A stretch of 64,000 nucleotides of DNA from Bdellovibrio sp. GTDB lineage: Bacteria > Bdellovibrionota > Bacteriovoracia > Bacteriovoracales > Bacteriovoracaceae. The DNA lies in the NCBI GenBank assembly GCA_016187935.1, contig JACPIU010000037.1, positions 106,831 through 170,830 on the forward strand, read 5' to 3'. The position numbers and the translations under genes were made by a program. The notes beneath the pieces were generated by a model. It was not told the origin of the DNA and made no database searches. It was given only the letters and a program-made list of their open reading frames with translations. This document shows, one piece after another, positions 2,534 through 64,000 of this stretch (position 1 is the stretch's first letter; every line of letters starts with the position of its first letter).

Positions 2534-3274
2534 TTAAACAACGGCGCCCGTACAATATTGAAGTTCCTTGTTGTCGGTTACTAGGATAACGTTATTCATC
2601 AATTTAATCATTCCTTCCTTTTGAAACTCAGATAATGTTCTGATAAATGTTTCATTGGCCATCCCCGCCAATGAGGAAAGTTCGATTCGCGACAACATAA
2701 GGGGGATATTGGTCTTGTTTACACCGACTTCCTTGCCGTAGCTGCTGGCCAGATTGAGCAGCGTTTCTGCCACCCGTTCACGAACAGATTTCTTGGAAAG
2801 ACTCAGAATTCTAACTTCGTCCCTCTCGATATTAAATTGATACTTTGAAATGATATTCGTGGCCAATTGCGGGTATTTTTTTAAAAGTCCCAAGATAAAA
2901 GATTTATCGTAGAAATACAGGGTGGAGTCTTGGACGGCGACAAGAGAATAGGTCGCTCGCGCGATTGAATTTGAAAGGATGGCCTGACCTCCAAAAAAAT
3001 CTCCATTCTCCGACAGTGAGATAATGGTCTCTTCTCCATTATCAAGGCTTTTAACCCTTTTCACTGTTCCGCTTTGGATGCAATAAATGCCAAAGAGGGG
3101 CGAGCCCTGAAAAAAGATTGTCTGGCCTTTTTTGTAGTTATTTTGAATCTTTGCACGATCAATTTCCTCAATGGTCGCGCGGGGAAGATCATTAAAGATA
3201 GAATTACTTTTCAAAAGTTGAAATCGATCAGCTCCAAGTTCATTTAAAATACACATCCGGCCCCCGTGACACAT
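2534..3274 (-). CDS. Crp/Fnr-family transcriptional regulator
   Basis: The 246-residue protein has an N-terminal cyclic-nucleotide-binding-like beta barrel (about residues 30-140, including GQTIFFQGSPLFGIYCIQSG) and a C-terminal HTH (about 165-230, RIELSSLAGMANETFIRTLS). The recognition helix keeps the Glu and Arg of the FNR/CRP family (E-T-F-I-R), but the Ser of FNR is Ile. The four-Cys iron-sulphur pattern of FNR is absent, so direct oxygen sensing by that cluster is unlikely. It is a close paralogue of the protein at 15813-16544. It is divergent from the two-component operon at 3422, and an FNR-type box lies between them. The start could be ATG 3274 or ATG 3256; neither has an ideal ribosome site. 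Confidence 0.9.
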   Translation of the reverse strand: MCHGGRMCILNELGADRFQLLKSNSIFNDLPRATIEEIDRAKIQNNYKKGQTIFFQGSPLFGIYCIQSGTVKRVKSLDNGEETIISLSENGDFFGGQAILSNSIARATYSLVAVQDSTLYFYDKSFILGLLKKYPQLATNIISKYQFNIERDEVRILSLSKKSVRERVAETLLNLASSYGKEVGVNKTNIPLMLSRIELSSLAGMANETFIRTLSEFQKEGMIKLMNNVILVTDNKELQYCTGAVV

Positions 3275-56924: not shown

Positions 56925-57170
56925 TTAGTCGGAAGTTCCACCCAAAGTCGTATTTAAAAAATGGGCCACCTTAGATCGCAGATCTTCAACAGAAAGTTCC
57001 TCTTGTTCAACCACTAACTCTTTTTTAATGAAATCAACAGGAAACCCTGTTAACTGCGATAATGAGTTGAGATCAACGCAATCGACAGATACTTTCTCTT
57101 TGTCCTTATCATGGCCATGGCCGATACCTGCTCTTCGCCCTAATGGCCTAGCAACACTGCCCGTCACCAT
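56925..57170 (-). CDS. Small protein upstream of motAB
   Basis: The 81-residue protein begins at ATG 57170, preceded by AAGGAG; the frame runs further upstream without support. A basic, His/Gly-rich start (RRAGIGHGHDKDKEKVSVD) leads into an acidic helical part (LSQLTGFPVDFIKKELVVE, QEELSVEDLRSKVAHFL). No signal or membrane helix is seen. It lies 160 bases upstream of motA on the same strand and may belong to the same transcript. I recognise no family. Confidence 0.6.
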   Translation of the reverse strand: MVTGSVARPLGRRAGIGHGHDKDKEKVSVDCVDLNSLSQLTGFPVDFIKKELVVEQEELSVEDLRSKVAHFLNTTLGGTSD

Positions 57171-57422
57171 AACAACACTCCTTTGCATATTTTCTCGGCC
57201 TATCCATCTGTGTGCGCTTCTTTCCAATCCAGTAAAAAAATCGCTATGCATTGCCGAAAAGGGTCTTTTCCTTTGACCCACATGAATCATAGCGATGGCC
57301 CTGAATTAATGTCAAACAGGGTCATACACTAAAAAGCCATTTGTAAGATTATATTAGAAAAGAACCTTGGTCTAAATATTCGAAAATAGTCAAACTCTTA
57401 CGTTTTATTTCGCCCTCAGAAG

Positions 57423-58619
57423 TCACTTTAGCTTCAGAGGCCCCATAAAACTTGCGACCTTGGCCACCATTTCATCGTATTCAGAGCAAACTTCTGACCT
57501 GAGCGTAATGCCTCCACCTGAACCATAAACTCCAGACTTTTTATTGAGGTCCAATTGCAAAGTACGAATATTGATTGAAGCTGCTGCCGCTTTCTTCCAT
57601 AAGAAAATGGTCGATCCGGTGTAAAAACCTCTGTCATAATTTTCCACAGTATCAAGAATTTCCATAGTCCTTTTTTTTGGTGCTCCCGTGATACTTCCCC
57701 CGGGAAAGAGAGCAGCTAAAATTTTTCCAAGGCTGATCTGGCGACTTAACTCGACAGAAATAAGTGAAGCCATGTGGGCCAAACCAGGCACACTTAAAGG
57801 AATTTTTTTTTCCAGTAATTTGGCCTTGGGATGCTCGATCTTGGAAAGATCATTACGAATCAAATCGATAATGATGAATAATTCATTTTGATTTTTTTTA
57901 TCATGCAACAATTGCTGATTAATCCTCTTCCTCTCTATCTCATTTGAAACTTTCAAAGTCCCTTTGATTGGCATGGACCATAAATTTATCGCATGCGCAT
58001 TGACCAGTGAAGCCTGGAACAAACACTCGGGGGAATTACTGAGTAGGCCAAAATTCAGACAAGGAATCACTGTACTATGAGCATAGGCCCCCATCATTCG
58101 AGGACGTGAAAAAAATGTCCTCACGACGTCAGAAATTTTCCCTTGCTTGAATTCATAGACAAATGGCGCAGTTAAATTTAGTTGATAACTGTCCCCTCTT
58201 AGCAAGGCTTCATAACATTGCTGGAAACGGGGAGCGTATTCTTCAAAGCTGGGACCATGCACCTCAAAAACTATTTCACTCTCAGGTTTCTCAGCAATGA
58301 AAGGTTCCACGCATTCATATTCCAAATCAATGCAAAGAGGTGTGGAACAAGGGGTATGAGCACCATATAAGATGTGCCCAAAATTATAATTTAAATGAAT
58401 GATCCTCGGCTTCGTTCTTGGGATTGGAGCAAAAAGTGCCACTCCAAAAAAATGATCCAGCAGCTCTTGAGAGCTACACGGAAAAACTTTCTGGGTTAGT
58501 AAATCTATCTTTTTATCTAAATAATACGCCCACGCATGGATCGGTTTAGAAAATTTCAGAATTGACTGGGTATCGTTAAAATAAAAAAGGGAGTTGATTG
58601 TGTCGTCACAGTCTCCCAT
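57423..58619 (-). CDS. pabB: Aminodeoxychorismate synthase component I (PabB-like)
   Basis: The 398-residue chorismate-binding enzyme has YQLNLTAPFVYEF, the PabB-type PIKGT in WSMPIKGTLKVSN (TrpE has PIAGT), LIRNDLSKIEHPKAKLL, PGGSITGAPKKRTMEILD and a C-terminal VYGSGGGITLRSEVCSEYDE. It makes aminodeoxychorismate for folate with a PabA partner not found here. No PabC domain is fused. It starts 4 bases after the dnaB stop and is probably co-transcribed with it. The pathway shares chorismate with the operon at 45992. Confidence 0.9.
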   Translation of the reverse strand: MGDCDDTINSLFYFNDTQSILKFSKPIHAWAYYLDKKIDLLTQKVFPCSSQELLDHFFGVALFAPIPRTKPRIIHLNYNFGHILYGAHTPCSTPLCIDLEYECVEPFIAEKPESEIVFEVHGPSFEEYAPRFQQCYEALLRGDSYQLNLTAPFVYEFKQGKISDVVRTFFSRPRMMGAYAHSTVIPCLNFGLLSNSPECLFQASLVNAHAINLWSMPIKGTLKVSNEIERKRINQQLLHDKKNQNELFIIIDLIRNDLSKIEHPKAKLLEKKIPLSVPGLAHMASLISVELSRQISLGKILAALFPGGSITGAPKKRTMEILDTVENYDRGFYTGSTIFLWKKAAAASINIRTLQLDLNKKSGVYGSGGGITLRSEVCSEYDEMVAKVASFMGPLKLK

Positions 58620-58623
58620 GGCC

Positions 58624-59955
58624 TTAATTATCCCGTTCGGTTAAATTCTCAAAACTGGTGTAAACCCCTTTCCATAATACTTTGACCGGCCCTGTTTCAC
58701 CTGAACGGTTTTTGGCGACAATCAGTTCAGCAACACCGGGCTCTTTTGAATCCTTGTTATAATAATCATCGCGATAAATTAAGATAACAATATCGGCATC
58801 CTGTTCGATCGAACCTGATTCACGCAAATCAGATGTGGTGGGTCTCTTATCGGGTCGCGCTTCAACACTTCGATTGAGCTGGCTCATCGCCACGACTGGA
58901 CAATCCAATTCTTTGGCCATGCCTTTTAAGGCCCGAGACATTTCAGCGATTTGTTGCTCGCGAGAGGGATTACTGGTATGACTTCTTAGCAATTGCAGAT
59001 AGTCGATAACCACAAGTCCGAGTCCTCGTTCGGCCTTAATTTTACGACAATAACTTTGAATATCAAGCACAGTGGTATTGCCATCATCGTTAATAAAAAT
59101 GGGCAGATTCGACAAGGTTCTCGTGGCATTGGCAATACTGCGAAGATCTTGCTCCATAAAATTTTTCATTTTTAAACGCTTCAGTTCTACATTAGCTTCG
59201 GCCGATAAAACCCTCATACTCAATTCTTTGCCCAACATTTCAAGAGAAAATATGACTACTGGAAACTGACTCATTTTGCAGGAACGCACGGCCATATTTA
59301 ATGCCAAAGCGGTTTTTCCCATGCCCGGTCTGGCCGCGATGACAATGAGCTGACCTGGTTGCATTCCCAACAATTTCGCATCCAAACGGCCAAAACTGGT
59401 AGGAAGTCCGGTGAGTTCTCCCGGGGCACGAGAGGTATCTTCCAATTCCTTAAGGTTGACCTTAATGCAATCCTTAAGGGTTTTTAGTCCTTTATTTTTT
59501 GCATCATTTGTGAGTTTAAAAAAAGATTCTTCTACCGTCTGAATAAATTCTTCCGTTTTGCCTTGGTGGTTCATTCCCATCTCGGCCACTCGCATAGCAG
59601 TGCGAATAATTTCACGCATTCCAGATTTTTCCTTCACGATTTTGGCATAGTGATAAATATTGGCGGAAGAAACCTGGTCCTCAATAATCTCATGAATAAA
59701 GGAGTGCCCCCCAAGCTCCTCTAAATTCCCCGTCTCCTGCAATCGCGCGCAAATTGTGACGAAATCAATTGGGCGATTTTGATCAGAAAGATCTTTGATT
59801 GCATTGAAAATTAAGCCGTACTTGGGATGAAAGAAATCTCCCTTAGCAAGACCTAAATCGACAATTGAATCAAGGGACTCTCCATCAATCAATAAACAAC
59901 CGACTAAGGATTTCTCGGCCAGTAGGTCGTGGGGCAATTCATTGGTCTGTTTCAT
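58624..59955 (-). CDS. dnaB: Replicative DNA helicase DnaB
   Basis: The 443-residue helicase unwinds DNA at the replication fork. The N-terminal dimer domain is followed by the RecA-like core with Walker A in AARPGMGKTALALNMAVR, Walker B in LVVIDYLQLL, and SQLNRSVEARPDKRP and IVILIYRDDYYNKDS after it. There is no intein, which is common in this gene elsewhere. GAGAAG precedes the ATG. It lies downstream of rplI beyond a terminator-like hairpin. Confidence 0.97.
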   Translation of the reverse strand: MKQTNELPHDLLAEKSLVGCLLIDGESLDSIVDLGLAKGDFFHPKYGLIFNAIKDLSDQNRPIDFVTICARLQETGNLEELGGHSFIHEIIEDQVSSANIYHYAKIVKEKSGMREIIRTAMRVAEMGMNHQGKTEEFIQTVEESFFKLTNDAKNKGLKTLKDCIKVNLKELEDTSRAPGELTGLPTSFGRLDAKLLGMQPGQLIVIAARPGMGKTALALNMAVRSCKMSQFPVVIFSLEMLGKELSMRVLSAEANVELKRLKMKNFMEQDLRSIANATRTLSNLPIFINDDGNTTVLDIQSYCRKIKAERGLGLVVIDYLQLLRSHTSNPSREQQIAEMSRALKGMAKELDCPVVAMSQLNRSVEARPDKRPTTSDLRESGSIEQDADIVILIYRDDYYNKDSKEPGVAELIVAKNRSGETGPVKVLWKGVYTSFENLTERDN

Positions 59956-59976
59956 TATCTTCTCATGTTGGAAAAG

Positions 59977-60003
59977 AAAAGGGCCGATGTTTTCGGCCCT
60001 TTT
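59977..60003 (-). terminator. Intrinsic terminator between rplI and dnaB
   Basis: On the minus strand a GGGCCGA/TCGGCCC stem with a 5-base loop is flanked by A and T runs and followed by TTTTCTTTT. It should end or reduce transcription from the rng-rplI genes before dnaB, giving dnaB/pabB lower readthrough or their own promoter. Confidence 0.75.
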
Positions 60004-60072
60004 GTAAATAGTGATGAAATAATAAGCTGGAGTTTGCTACAAAATCCACCAATCCGTATTACAAAATTTCGT

Positions 60073-60675
60073 CTAACTACGTAAAATTTTGTTAGCCTCA
60101 ATGGATAGCTTTTCATCGTCAGTTAATTCTCGTTCCGGCTGAGCGGGAATATCCGACGGGGTCTCTGTAGTTTCAACTTTCTTAACCTTCTTGGCGGCTT
60201 TACTCTTGGCCTTTAATTCCTCGGCCTGCTCGGGGTCCATGACCACTTGCACTTGGAATTTTGCCTCTACATCTTGAAATAATTTCACTTTCACATCAAA
60301 AGTGCCAACTGACTTGATTGGATTAGGAATGACCATTAAGCGACGCTCAACAGAAATTCCTTTTGCTTCCAGCTCTCGGGCCAGATCAACGGTTGTCACA
60401 GTTCCAAACAGCTTTCCGTTTGCCCCAACTTTCTTCACAAATTCAAGCCGGAGACCGTCAATTTGTTGCTTGGTGGCCAGTGCGGACTTCTTATGCTCAT
60501 CTACTTTTTTGCCGAGACGCTTCTTATGCATATCTAGTTGTTTCTGATTTTTTTCATCAGCATAAACCGCCAATTTTCTTGGGGCCAAAAAATTTCTAAA
60601 ATAACCATTTGATACGTTAACGATTTCACCAACATTACCAAGGTGGAGTACACGGTCCACTAAAATAACCTTCAT
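60073..60675 (-). CDS. rplI: 50S ribosomal protein bL9 with C-terminal extension
   Basis: The 200-residue protein is bL9 in its first 150 residues (VILVDRVLHLGNVGEIVNVS, GYFRNFLAPRKLAVYADEKN, KLFGTVTTVDLARELEAKG). Usual length is about 150; here a Lys-rich then acidic tail of about 45 residues (KAKSKAAKKVKKVETTETP, ERELTDDEKLSIEANKIL) is added. Its start lies in the 3' end of the DUF2232 gene (ATGA overlap) with AAGGAG upstream. Confidence 0.96.
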   Translation of the reverse strand: MKVILVDRVLHLGNVGEIVNVSNGYFRNFLAPRKLAVYADEKNQKQLDMHKKRLGKKVDEHKKSALATKQQIDGLRLEFVKKVGANGKLFGTVTTVDLARELEAKGISVERRLMVIPNPIKSVGTFDVKVKLFQDVEAKFQVQVVMDPEQAEELKAKSKAAKKVKKVETTETPSDIPAQPERELTDDEKLSIEANKILRS

Positions 60676-61748
60676 ACAATATCTCCTTCTTCATTATTTT
60701 TTTTAAAAAATTTTCGAAAATTAAACCAATTATCAAAAAGGCCTACCAATGCCACAATTTTCCAAGCTGAAAAGATTGTAAACACCACAACAATACTTCT
60801 AAAGAAACCAACAATTTTAAGTGAAGTTAAGAGTGCCAGGAAGACTCCAATGCCCTGAAAAAAATAAAAAACTCCCACGGCATATAAGAGATTAATCCCC
60901 ACGACCTGCAACCACTCACCGGCAACATAATCACCGCCAGCGGCCAAAGCAAGACCAACAATTAAAACTGAGAGCAACCAGTCCGGGCCTTTAAAATCAA
61001 TCAATGCTTGTATATTAAATGGGTAAGGTCTCAACATCTTCCAAGCAGCGGCATTCCGCAAAATCAAGAACAGCGATATCCATAAGGATATAACGGTTGT
61101 CACAAACAAGACGCTAGGTGACCATTGCAACAATTCTCGAACAATTCCATTCGGGTCTTGTAACATATCTTGCAGCGCTCTAATCTCTTCGCCACCTTTA
61201 GCAACTAATTGTGCATATTCTGCATTGCTCTTGATTTCTTCGATGCCAGTTTTAACCACTTCCAACAGATACGTTTTAATCGAAATACCGGAGGACCAAA
61301 CAACTATTCCAGCTGTACCAGCGATCAATCCAAAGAGCCCAATACCGTATTTCAAAACAGCGTTTGCCGGGTTGATCTGTCTTTTAATGATCGCAAACAC
61401 TACCGCCCCATAGAGAAGGGACAAGAAAAAAACACCGGCACTCACAAAAGAGAGACCTGTCTGAAAAATTAAAACTCCAACGGCTGCAACGAATAACACA
61501 CTGACAACGGCTGTCTTGAGAGGGCCGAAAAGTAAAAACGCCAATGCTAAAGGGGTCGGGGCCAGCATAAAAAAAGGCGTAAACGAACTCAAGACCACCG
61601 ATAGAGCGACCAAAAAAATCAGTTTTCCCAATGACTGCTTGCCTAGCTTCTGCGCTAGAGCACCGCCTGGAACGCCCTCTGGGGCAGGTCCAATCGTCGG
61701 GTTCGACGGTGCGTTATGTTTGGCGCTCTCTGTGCTCACGTTGTTCAC
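60672..61748 (-). CDS. DUF2232 (YybS-like) membrane protein
   Basis: The 358-residue protein has about eight hydrophobic helices (LGKLIFLVALSVVLSSFTPF, LAFLLFGPLKTAVVSVLFV, LFGLIAGTAGIVVWSSG, and others) after a Pro-rich start. It starts with GTG 61748 (GGGGAG upstream). The position between S18 and bL9 is typical of YybS/DUF2232 genes in Firmicutes and deltaproteobacteria. The function is unknown; the family is related in layout to small-molecule transporter S components. Confidence 0.8.
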   Translation of the reverse strand: MNNVSTESAKHNAPSNPTIGPAPEGVPGGALAQKLGKQSLGKLIFLVALSVVLSSFTPFFMLAPTPLALAFLLFGPLKTAVVSVLFVAAVGVLIFQTGLSFVSAGVFFLSLLYGAVVFAIIKRQINPANAVLKYGIGLFGLIAGTAGIVVWSSGISIKTYLLEVVKTGIEEIKSNAEYAQLVAKGGEEIRALQDMLQDPNGIVRELLQWSPSVLFVTTVISLWISLFLILRNAAAWKMLRPYPFNIQALIDFKGPDWLLSVLIVGLALAAGGDYVAGEWLQVVGINLLYAVGVFYFFQGIGVFLALLTSLKIVGFFRSIVVVFTIFSAWKIVALVGLFDNWFNFRKFFKKNNEEGDIV

Positions 61749-61766
61749 CTAATTTCTCCCCAACGC

Positions 61767-62393
61767 CTATTCAATCACTCTATTGGATAAATAGCTCGCA
61801 ATTCCCATGGTACGAGCACGTTTAATCGCTGTGGTTGAAAAGCGTTGATGTTTACGACTAATACCGCTGATACGGGCAGGGGAAATTTTCCCAAACTCGT
61901 TGATCAGCCACATAAATGTTTTGGGATCTTTCCAATCTGCTCGAATCTCTTTGGAAGTAAACCAGCAACCTCGCCGCCGAGAAAATTTACTGTGTTCACG
62001 ATCCTCCAATTCATCTCCTTCTTTGACTTCAGCATCGGCCACAGATCCATAATACTTTTTGGAAAGAGGTGTCTTATAGAGTTTTACAATCTTTTCTTGA
62101 AAGCGATCTTCACCTAAACTAATAATTAAATGGCGAACGACATGCTCATTAATGCCCAATTTTCGAGACAATTCGGCGTTTATTGTTGATCCGCCTTTAA
62201 ACATAAAATAGGTATAGTGACCTTTTTTCTGACCAGATTCTGAAGCCTGGGCAAATACTTTTTGCCCCCACACATCTTCAATCAATAACTCGCCTTTGAA
62301 TTCTGCAATAACTTCTTTCACCATTGACGACAACGCATTATAGGCGCCGTCTCCTGCATCGGCCTTTGAAATAACGGCCAATTCATAGATCAT
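61767..62393 (-). CDS. Ribosomal protein bS6-bS18 fusion
   Basis: A single 208-codon frame encodes two 30S platform proteins. Residues 1 to about 105 are bS6 (MIYELAVISKADAGDGAYNA, GQKKGHYTYFMFKGGSTINA, NEHVVRHLIISLGEDR). A charged linker (about 106-135) leads to bS18 (about 136-208: RRGCWFTSKEIRADW, FGKISPARISGISRKHQRFS, TTAIKRARTMGIASYL). Both parts have near-full length. In bacteria S6 and S18 bind 16S rRNA as a heterodimer, so a fusion would be structurally reasonable. AGGAGG precedes the ATG. An internal AAGGAG and in-frame TTG (codon 129) lie at the junction and could start S18 alone. No rpsR gene is found next to it. Confidence 0.92.
   Translation of the reverse strand: MIYELAVISKADAGDGAYNALSSMVKEVIAEFKGELLIEDVWGQKVFAQASESGQKKGHYTYFMFKGGSTINAELSRKLGINEHVVRHLIISLGEDRFQEKIVKLYKTPLSKKYYGSVADAEVKEGDELEDREHSKFSRRRGCWFTSKEIRADWKDPKTFMWLINEFGKISPARISGISRKHQRFSTTAIKRARTMGIASYLSNRVIE
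62007..62020 (-). promoter_or_regulatory. Internal ribosome site and TTG at the S6-S18 junction
   Basis: On the minus strand AAGGAG (62020-62015) is 5 bases before an in-frame TTG (62009-62007, codon 129). Initiation here would give a separate S18 of about 80 residues, close to normal length. It may be a relic of a former rpsR start or a working one. Confidence 0.5.
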
Positions 62394-62512
62394 AGAAACC
62401 TCCTGGACTAAGGCCCATGGACTAAATTATCAAACGCCACGGGCAAGATTTTTGAACGATTGTGCAACTTATCAGACGGTATGGATTTTGGGAAGCAATA
62501 ACGCAATGCAAA

Positions 62513-64000
62513 TCAGGCATAATCCTGGGGGAAAATTTCATACTGCTCAATATGGTAGTTATTCTCTGACCGAATGACGATGGCCTTGTCGAATTTTGTT
62601 TCTAGATTTTCAATAATATCGATATCTTCACCACATAGAAGAGCGGAAATCTCGGGGTGGGCATAGACGAAAATCTTCTGCACTTTCTCCTTAGAGATAA
62701 TCTTAATGAGTTCGCGCACGATCTCATAGCAGACCGTCAAGGTGGATTTAATTCGTCCAGCTCCTTCACAATAAGGGCACGCACTACACATAATTCGAGT
62801 CAAGGTATCTCGTGTACGTTTTCTGGTCATCTCAACTAAACCTAAACCAGAGATGGGAAGGACGTTGGTTTTGGCGCGGTCTTTTTTTAATGCTTCAAGT
62901 AGCGCTTGATATACCATCGTGCGATGTTCTATTCGTTCCATATCAATAAAATCAATGATGATTATCCCACCACAGTTGCGCAGACGTAATTGGTAGGCGA
63001 TTTCCTTCACAGCTTCGAGATTTGTTTTGAGGATTGTATCCTCGAGATTCTTCCGGCCAACAAATTTTCCGGTATTCACGTCAACCGAGACCAGGGCCTC
63101 AGTTTGATCAATGTTCAAGGAACCGCCAGATTTCAAAAATACTTTATTTGAAAGTGCCCGTTCGATTTCCAACTCAACTCCATAATGCTCAAAGAGCGGA
63201 GTCTCACCATCGTAATACTTTGCTTTGCCTTTAAGGGCGGGAAGATACTTGAGAGCAAATTTCTCTACTTCTTTAAAATTATCTTTCGAGTCCACGGTAA
63301 CAACGTCAACATCTTCGTCGGTAATATCTCTTAGAACTCGTTGAACGAAAGATAAATCCTTGTAACAAAGAGATGGGGCCTTTATCTTCTCGGATATTTT
63401 CTGAATATCGCGCCATATTTTGACGAGCATATTAAAATCACTCTTCAATGTCTTATAGGACTGTCCTTCGGCAACGGTTCGGGCAATGATCCCTTTCCCT
63501 TCCGGTCGAATAGAATCCAAAATGTCTTTCAGGCGATCCCGCTCTTTATCGTCTTCAATCCGTCGCGAAACTCCGGTATGCTCAATAAAAGGCATAAACA
63601 CGACGTGTCGCCCGGCAAGAGTGATATGACGAGTTACACGTGGTCCTTTTGAAGAAATAGGTTCTTTTGCTACTTGAATGAGAATTTCATCTCCCTCTTT
63701 TAAGATATTTTCGACCGCGGCATCAGGGCGAAATTTAATACTCATAGTTTCAGTGAAGGTTGAGAGTTCATCGGGGATGACCTCCCCTAGTTTGCTCTGC
63801 ACGTCAGTTTGTTGCTGCTTAAGAAGATCAGCAACGGCACGTTGTTCCTGCAGCGTGGGAATGTAGGCATCATCAACATAAAGAAAAGCGGCCTTTTCCT
63901 GGCCAATATCGACAAAGGCCGATTGCATGCCTGGCAGAACTCGAACCACTCGCCCCTTATAAATATTTCCAACACGTGGGGAACTATCTCCGTGTTCGTG
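62513..64000 (-). CDS. rng: Ribonuclease G/E (5' end outside window)
   Basis: The frame is open to the window edge; 495 codons are visible. The S1-like start (VGNIYKGRVVRVLPGMQSAF, VDIGQEKAAFLYVDDAYIP) shows the gene begins beyond 64000; only about 30-40 residues are missing. The catalytic Asp lies in IIIIDFIDMERIEHRTM, after VSVDVNTGKFVGRKNLEDT, and the zinc-link CPxC motif is in ACPYCEGAGRIKS. The short length after it fits RNase G rather than RNase E with its long tail. It processes 5S/16S rRNA and mRNA. The S6-S18 gene follows after 119 bases. Confidence 0.93.
   Translation of the reverse strand, partial: HEHGDSSPRVGNIYKGRVVRVLPGMQSAFVDIGQEKAAFLYVDDAYIPTLQEQRAVADLLKQQQTDVQSKLGEVIPDELSTFTETMSIKFRPDAAVENILKEGDEILIQVAKEPISSKGPRVTRHITLAGRHVVFMPFIEHTGVSRRIEDDKERDRLKDILDSIRPEGKGIIARTVAEGQSYKTLKSDFNMLVKIWRDIQKISEKIKAPSLCYKDLSFVQRVLRDITDEDVDVVTVDSKDNFKEVEKFALKYLPALKGKAKYYDGETPLFEHYGVELEIERALSNKVFLKSGGSLNIDQTEALVSVDVNTGKFVGRKNLEDTILKTNLEAVKEIAYQLRLRNCGGIIIIDFIDMERIEHRTMVYQALLEALKKDRAKTNVLPISGLGLVEMTRKRTRDTLTRIMCSACPYCEGAGRIKSTLTVCYEIVRELIKIISKEKVQKIFVYAHPEISALLCGEDIDIIENLETKFDKAIVIRSENNYHIEQYEIFPQDYA

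What the first reader, a model, noticed from the sequence alone, without database searches (positions are those of the whole stretch)
61767..62393. Ribosomal proteins S6 and S18 fused in one open frame
Complete bS6 and bS18 sequences follow each other without a stop, joined by a charged linker. The two proteins form a heterodimer on the 30S platform (established for bacteria), so a covalent dimer would fix their ratio and assembly. I know of no described natural fusion. It also affects leader autoregulation, which in many bacteria uses the S6:S18 complex binding its own mRNA.
Basis: partly seen in the sequence, partly recalled or inferred. Interest (0 to 1): 0.85.

Follow-up and report, generated by a model that had tools for sequence, protein, structure and literature searches.

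The report
Ribosomal proteins S6-S18 fused in Bacteriovoracales
In this bacterium, a relative of the Bacteriovorax predators, two ribosome proteins that are normally separate (S6 and S18) are encoded as one joined protein, as in 110 of the 119 genomes of its family where the gene was found, so the pair is likely built into the ribosome as a single linked unit.

Summary
Confirmed. Window 62393-61767 (minus strand) is one 208-codon frame: bS6, a charged linker of about 40 residues, bS18. The genome (99% complete) shows no other S6 or S18 gene. It is no sequencing error: in the window's family (129 genomes, 48 genera; named relatives are mostly Bacteriovoracales-type, with two cultured Bacteriovorax isolates) 110 of 119 genomes with a match have the fusion intact, 3 are cut by contig ends, 5 keep two genes, 1 has an in-frame stop in the linker. 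In 214 other genomes of the phylum no S18 lies in a frame as long. Whether it arose once is open: the best trees place one unfused clade beside one half of the fused ones, but a single origin is not rejected. The linker is under protein-level selection, combines the S6 tail and S18 N-extension of unfused relatives, and has no conserved internal start. A covarying hairpin precedes the gene; its layout is that of the RpsF leader known to bind S6:S18. A second, Acidobacteriota-like fusion group exists. The papers searched describe no such fusion. Whether the protein stays uncut in the ribosome is untested. New variant of a known kind.

The parts
61767..62393 (-). Fused bS6-bS18 gene, 208 aa
62121..62387 (-). 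bS6 domain (Pfam, residues 3-91)
61986..62108 (-). Linker, residues 96-136: S6 C-tail (VKLYKTPLSKKYYGS), acidic spacer, S18 N-extension (DREHSK)
   Evidence: lowest model confidence at residues 123-130
61788..61985 (-). bS18 domain (NCBIfam S18, residues 137-202)
62391..62455 (-). Leader hairpin, including the start codon; predicted to pair with part of the ribosome-binding site
62399..62404 (-). Shine-Dalgarno sequence AGGAGG of the fused gene
   Evidence: read directly
62007..62020 (-). Possible internal start in the linker: AAGGAG, 5 bases, TTG (codon 129); not conserved in the family
62513..63949 (-). Upstream neighbour: ribonuclease E/G (first start listed; the open frame runs off the window's end)
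60672..61748 (-). Downstream neighbour: DUF2232 membrane protein
60073..60675 (-). Downstream neighbour: ribosomal protein bL9
58624..59955 (-). Downstream neighbour: DnaB helicase

Best explanation
The gene encodes S6 and S18 as one continuous protein, and this protein is predicted to stay uncut and to take the place of the S6:S18 pair both on the 30S platform and on the hairpin in front of its own gene. Shown: one frame, no other copy found, retention across most of the family, protein-level selection on the linker, a covarying leader stem. Inferred: the S6 domain, its C-tail and the S18 domain sit where the separate proteins sit, with the acidic spacer as a loose tether; the pair is made 1:1 by construction; the fused protein binds the leader hairpin, whose outer stem uses part of the ribosome-binding site, and so represses its own translation. 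Origin (inferred): loss of the stop between adjacent rpsF and rpsR early in the family, the linker being the old S6 tail plus the old S18 N-extension; once or twice is open.
For: Single copy: own genome; each of the 118 genomes of the family with an S18 match has exactly one. Distribution: (110 fused of 119 with a match, 129 searched); 79 of the 80 named loci kept are fused in one frame, among them isolates Bacteriovorax sp. BSW11_IV and DB6_IX; 239 other genomes of the phylum: 215 S18 matches in 214 genomes, frames of 74-167 aa, while the shortest uncut fused frame in the family has 203. Linker: pN/pS 0.04, 0.17, 0.15 for the three pairs of the three same-genus genomes, S6 part 0.09, 0.18, 0.15; 33 of 91 non-redundant fused frames have no in-frame ATG, GTG or TTG in the linker; unfused relatives end S6 in NYKSPF or similar and start S18 with ..DKDRRMFSRKK or similar, the two halves of the linker. 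E. coli S18 K60 and R63, whose change weakens leader binding and regulation (passages of PMC4647458), align with K191 and R194, invariant in 34 of 34 fused proteins. Leader: 88.9% of pair cells standard against 76.7% in shuffles, covariation 0.404 against 0.194; a model from 15 leaders of one part of the family finds 26 of 29 held-out fused loci at E up to 1 (21 under 0.01), at the S6 start each time, and nothing outside S6 starts in 256 kb. Fold: mean pLDDT 83.9, pTM 0.79.
Against: No protein data: cleavage or internal initiation is not excluded. The window itself has AAGGAG-5-TTG in the linker and same-genus G040 has ATG after AAGG at that place; same-genus G041 has no start codon in its linker. 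G071, placed beside fused lineages, has a stop in the linker and no usual start codon for S18, so either S18 can be made some other way or that sequence is wrong. The place of E. coli R61 is R in only 28 of 34. Two of the five leader measures do not exceed the shuffles: pairs with two-sided changes 5 against 4.4, and pair types 24 against 21.6. The best trees put G058-G060 (and G020) beside one half of the fused lineages, which by itself would need two fusions or a fusion and a split. The S6-S18 docking of the model was not inspected, as no coordinates are given.
Confidence: 0.75

Rival explanations
1. The fused chain is a precursor that a protease cuts in the linker, giving ordinary separate S6 and S18, as happens with ubiquitin-ribosomal protein fusions in eukaryotes.
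For: The linker is long, charged and partly of low model confidence; the ubiquitin-eL40 case shows that cleaved ribosomal fusions exist (title and abstract start of PMC6721733 in the listing).
Against: No invariant motif in the spacer, which varies in length (31-46 residues between the domain models) and sequence (by eye); the better conserved linker parts are the S6 tail and the S18 extension that unfused relatives also have.
Confidence: 0.13
2. The frame is fused, but a ribosome-binding site in the linker also starts separate S18, so fused and free forms coexist.
For: Window and G040 have an in-frame start with an SD-like sequence; 13 of 91 fused frames have some start plus SD-like 4-mer; per codon slightly more than in the gene bodies (9 of 2246 against 18 of 8121).
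Against: Not conserved even within the genus (G041 has none); 33 of 91 have no usual start codon in the linker; purine-rich K/E/D codons make SD-like words likely by chance (inference). The real S6 start passes the same SD test in 82 of 89.
Confidence: 0.1
3. The open frame is an assembly or sequencing error that hides a stop codon.
For: The window's assembly is in 48 contigs.
Against: Same frame in G040, G041, P0001 (95%), P0002 (88%) and over a hundred other genomes, and in isolate genomes.
Confidence: 0.01

Closest known systems
bS6 (rpsF) and bS18 (rpsR), the separate 30S platform proteins
   Same: Both Pfam families over their cut-offs; S6 then S18 upstream of bL9, as in E. coli rpsF-priB-rpsR-rplI; S6 fold and C-tail
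   Different: One chain instead of two; no stop and no conserved start between them; nothing in the place of priB; DUF2232 lies between the fusion and bL9
RpsF leader (Rfam RF02893), the RNA that binds the S6:S18 complex in E. coli, with a B. subtilis counterpart
   Same: Position directly before rpsF; inner hairpin, 3'-side internal loop with a CC pair, outer stem using the ribosome-binding site
   Different: Not recognised by the Rfam model; third base of the CCG motif is mostly A (37 of 42); short outer stem CTC/GAG
Acidobacteriota-like S6-S18 fusions (P0127, P0138, P0144, P0148, P0158, P0182, P0241-P0250)
   Same: S6 then S18 in one protein of 222-240 aa with a charged linker
Ubiquitin-ribosomal protein fusions of eukaryotes (eL40, eS31)
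   Same: A ribosomal protein made as part of a fusion
   Different: There the partner is not a ribosomal protein and is cut off (title and abstract start of PMC6721733, listing)

Membership tests
bS6 | Curated family models over cut-off | tested here: met
   Pfam PF01250 57.5 bits against 27; but NCBIfam TIGR00166 is under its cut-off, 38.3 against 42.9
bS6 | S6 fold | tested here: met
bS18 | Pfam PF01084 and NCBIfam TIGR00165 over cut-off | tested here: met
   55.1 bits against 21; 54 against 38.75
bS18 | RNA-binding residues (E. coli K60, R63) | tested here: met
   They align with K191 and R194, invariant in 34 of 34; their role from passages of PMC4647458
bS6 and bS18 | Present in the 30S subunit as separate chains | not testable with these tools
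   No protein data; the gene encodes one chain
RpsF leader (RF02893) | Match to the Rfam model | tested here: not met
   No match up to E 5 in 57000-64000 nor up to E 1 in 13 loci of the family, 7 fused and 6 not; the E. coli control matches at 5.7e-26
RpsF leader (RF02893) | Architecture: inner hairpin plus outer stem including the ribosome-binding site | tested here: met
   Inner stem: two-sided changes in 5 of 7 pairs, 86.6% of cells paired; outer stem: 94.3% paired but no two-sided change
RpsF leader (RF02893) | CCG in the bulge | tested here: inconclusive
   CC conserved (41 and 42 of 42), third base A in 37, G in 4, T in 1 of 42
RpsF leader (RF02893) | Binding of the S6:S18 complex | not testable with these tools
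   Needs an RNA-binding assay
Cleavable ribosomal protein fusion | Proteolytic cleavage of the chain | not testable with these tools
   Needs protein mass data

The most novel reading that the evidence does not exclude
A permanent natural covalent fusion of two ribosomal proteins: most of a bacterial family builds every 30S subunit with S6 and S18 as one chain and represses that chain with a leader RNA meant for the pair, and a second bacterial lineage has arrived at the same fusion on its own.
Probability: 0.65. Interest if true: 0.75.

Novelty: new variant of a known kind. Interest (0 to 1): 0.62.

Why it matters
S6 and S18 form a heterodimer before they join the ribosome, and the pair also controls its own mRNA (passages of PMC4647458). 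A natural covalent version, with surviving unfused relatives, lets one ask directly whether free exchange, separate dosage or the free ends of the two proteins matter; S6 C-terminal glutamylation by RimK (PMC10931766 passage) would be blocked by the fusion. It also matters for annotation: of the 24 records with a name among the 120 listed, 10 are named for both proteins, 8 for S18 alone, 5 for S6 alone and 1 is called hypothetical, so marker-gene counts can miss one of the pair.

Tried and rejected
Sequencing error: rejected. Second rpsR or rpsF: none in the own genome; apart from halves of the same gene, the only second S6-like match in the family search is weak, on a 4.4-kb contig of G074 (30% identity). 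RimI (S18 N-acetyltransferase, TIGR01575) loss as a footprint of the hidden S18 N-terminus: uninformative, because 278 of 368 genomes, unfused ones included, have no match over the cut-off. Rfam: no match to the leader. Ancestral state: the careful RpoB tree (60 rows) puts G064 first (support 84/76) and G058-G060 beside one half of the fused rows (73/27), with G071 next to that half (97/94); the concatenated tree (28 rows) puts G020 and G058-G060 beside that half at 77/94 and G071 beside fused G057 at 84/54. One clade of all fused rows plus G071 is not rejected (AU p 0.43 for RpoB; 0.096 concatenated); without G071 it is rejected in the concatenated set (p 0.006) and borderline in RpoB (p 0.055). 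G071 was added to the group after the first tree was seen. RpoB was found in only 90 of 129 genomes, so G020 and G057 are placed by DnaB, S6 and S18 alone. VIA-align covers only the S6 part; the S18 part was barely tested by it, and Foldseek's 50 printed rows gave no S18 chain that I recognise. Sporadic fusions: of 120 listed proteins (1812 found) 20 bear both domains; 6 belong to the Acidobacteriota-like group, 11 look alike among themselves but have linkers of very different length and lie on one contig each (possible stop-loss assembly pieces; I take them from memory for Bacteroidota, no call names them), 3 stand alone; apart from the 6, none was followed up.

Rows dropped: leader alignment A4 uses 42 of 56 upstream stretches; left out before counting were 6 near-duplicates, 5 unfused ones and 3 fused ones without a clear motif (L031, L036, L086), so leans towards the motif. 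Two further loci had too little sequence upstream (L057, L067). One search is the fairer test, though its structure line was taken over from A4: 26 of 29 held-out fused loci at E up to 1 (L031, L035, L045 missed), 2 of 5 unfused (L056 and L058 found; L053-L055 missed), 0 of 15 others.

Papers. Passages seen: PMC4647458, PMC4511183, PMC2837039, PMC7247131, PMC4378268, PMC10931766, PMC7203096. The main texts of PMC11656739 and PMC5760749 do not hold the terms asked for. PMC6721733: listing only. No supplement was read.

Full report
What is there. On the minus strand of the window, 62393-61767, one open frame of 208 codons starts with ATG after AGGAGG and runs through bS6 and bS18 without a stop. 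Pfam gives Ribosomal_S6 at residues 3-91 and Ribosomal_S18 at 150-198, both over cut-off. NCBIfam agrees for S18 and gives S6 under its stricter cut-off, 38.3 against 42.9 bits. The neighbours are ribonuclease E/G upstream and DUF2232, bL9 and DnaB downstream. The own genome, 4.4 Mb and 99.25% complete, has one S18 and one S6 match, both in this frame.

How widespread. Searching the 129 genomes of the same family with the fused protein gave a match in 119. My count of that table: 110 have the whole protein in one frame without a stop; 3 (G014, G110, G120) are cut by contig ends (contig lengths); 6 are not fused. Five of those (G020, G058, G059, G060, G064) have two genes, each S18 with its own ATG and an SD-like sequence before it; the sixth (G071) has the same frame with one TAA in the linker and no ATG, GTG or TTG between it and the S18 core. 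In the phylum search each of the 118 genomes of this family with an S18 match had exactly one. Of the 239 other genomes of the phylum that are held, 214 have S18 (215 matches), in frames of 74-167 aa; the shortest uncut fused frame in the family has 203. A scan of named genomes found 98 loci and kept 80, titled Bacteriovoracaceae, Halobacteriovoraceae, Bacteriovoracia, Bdellovibrionales and, in some cases, broader or older names; 79 are fused in one frame and the exception is the G071 contig. They include Bacteriovorax sp. BSW11_IV and DB6_IX, which are isolates (passages of PMC4511183). Of 292 homologous proteins the 120 listed all bear both domains. The operon order around the gene is kept: 84 of 86 loci examined show DUF2232 next after S6-S18 (several loci are short).

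Origin. The unfused G064 branches first in the careful RpoB tree of 60 rows (84/76), but G058-G060 fall beside one half of the fused rows with weak support (73/27), and G071 next to that half (97/94). With DnaB, S6 and S18 added for 28 rows, G020 joins G058-G060 (88/94), that clade again lies beside one fused half (77/94), and G071 lies beside fused G057 (84/54). Taken at face value these trees need two fusions, or one fusion and a later split, plus the break in G071. One clade of all fused rows plus G071 is not rejected (p 0.43; p 0.096). So one early fusion is possible and simplest, but not shown. The unfused relatives show where the linker came from: their S6 ends in NYKSPF or similar and their S18 begins with a long extension ending DKDRRMFSRKK or similar, while fused linkers run ..VKNYKTPFSKKYNGS..acidic..EKDRRRFARRK.

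Is it made as one protein? Between the window and its two same-genus relatives the linker changes mostly at silent sites (pN/pS 0.04, 0.17 and 0.15 for the three pairs; S6 part 0.09, 0.18 and 0.15; S18 part 0.03, 0.02 and 0.03), so the linker is read as protein; silent sites are near saturation, so the ratios are rough. In 91 non-redundant fused frames, 33 have no usual start codon in the linker and 13 have a start with an SD-like word, while the S6 start passes the same test in 82 of 89. The window has such a start: AAGGAG, five bases, TTG at 62009. Its same-genus relative G041 has no start there. So free S18 from the window's gene cannot be excluded, but internal initiation is not a feature of the family. 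The AlphaFold2 model from 34 aligned proteins has mean pLDDT 83.9 and pTM 0.79, lowest at residues 123-130; its S6 part matches S6 chains including their C-terminal tail (9h90_f, model residues 1-116); the S18 part was barely tested there. E. coli S18 K60 and R63, whose change weakens leader binding and regulation (PMC4647458 passages), align with K191 and R194, invariant in all 34 aligned fusions; the place of R61 is R in 28 of 34.

The leader. Upstream of the fused genes lies a hairpin, CTC-GCTC(n)..(n)GGGC, followed by a loop with CC and then AGGAGG. On 42 selected leaders the inner stem has two-sided changes in 5 of 7 pairs, and the outer CTC/GAG stem, which takes part of the ribosome-binding site, is paired in 94.3% of cells without two-sided changes; overall 88.9% of cells pair against 76.7% in shuffles and 34-59% when slid, and covariation is 0.404 against 0.194; the number of pairs with two-sided changes and the number of pair types do not clearly exceed the shuffles. 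A model from these finds the window's leader at 62391-62455 (E 1.4e-13) and nothing else in 64 kb (the window's leader is in the training set), and 78 of the 80 named loci, the other two having only 12 bases upstream; three other matches there are weak (E 0.15 to 0.91) and L056 (unfused) is found while L053-L055 and L057 are not (these loci overlap the training species). A model from 15 leaders of one part of the family finds 26 of 29 held-out fused loci at E up to 1, 21 of them under 0.01, and 2 of 5 unfused ones, at the S6 start each time, with no hit in 15 other loci; the window's own score there is weak (E 0.011). The layout is that of the E. coli RpsF leader, which Rfam recognises in E. 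coli but not here. Binding is inferred.

A second case. A search with a joined S6+S18 query found, among 120 listed of 1812 proteins, 20 with both domains that are not among those listed. Six of them, aligned and searched again, head a group of 16 clusters of 222-240 aa with a different linker; the other 104 listed hits are separate S6 proteins, named Pyrinomonadaceae or Acidobacteriota where an organism is given. This looks like an independent fusion in Acidobacteriota; DNA and organism names of the fused ones were not available.

What is known. The searches of the open-access library gave no paper describing an S6-S18 fusion; two genomics papers on these predators do not hold the terms. Ten of 24 named records carry the name 'ribosomal protein S18/ribosomal protein S6', so the fusion is in automatic annotation but, as far as searched, not in print. 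Most subscription papers are not held, so this is not proof of absence.

Verdict. The gene fusion is certain. A stable covalent S6-S18 protein in the ribosome is the best reading (0.75). It is a new variant of a known pair rather than a new system; the interest lies in its spread over most of a family, the retained leader, the surviving unfused relatives and the likely second origin.

Noticed in passing
L058 (G071), 2559-3164 minus strand; same contig as L222: In-frame TAA in the linker with no ATG, GTG or TTG before the S18 core, in a genome rated 99% complete with no other S18 match: a break, a sequencing error or an unusual way of making S18.
   Followed up: partly
L071, L072, L090 (families f2 and f3 of the same phylum): S18 seems to stand apart: my S6 model found no S6 in the 5-5.5 kb fetched around it, unlike in most other loci of the phylum. 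The model is built from the fused family, so a divergent S6 could be missed.
   Followed up: partly
Protein P0123: A 184-aa protein made of two nearly identical S18 copies in tandem; real duplication or assembly repeat.
   Followed up: no
Proteins P0125, P0126, P0128, P0130-P0135, P0137, P0149: Eleven similar S6-S18 read-through proteins with very different linker lengths, some with what looks like a leftover S18 start inside; possibly stop-loss or assembly artefacts.
   Followed up: no
L084:4380-4532: Weak match to the Rfam L20 leader, under the gathering score.
   Followed up: no
G000:C32:15556-16248: A second, short DnaB-like stretch (open frame of 246 aa) in the window's own genome.
   Followed up: no
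G325, contigs C6 and C2: Two S18 genes in one genome of family f26.
   Followed up: no
Family f1 genomes: The RpoB domain was not found in 39 of 129 genomes, some over 90% complete; probably a limit of the held sequences, not a biological absence.
   Followed up: no
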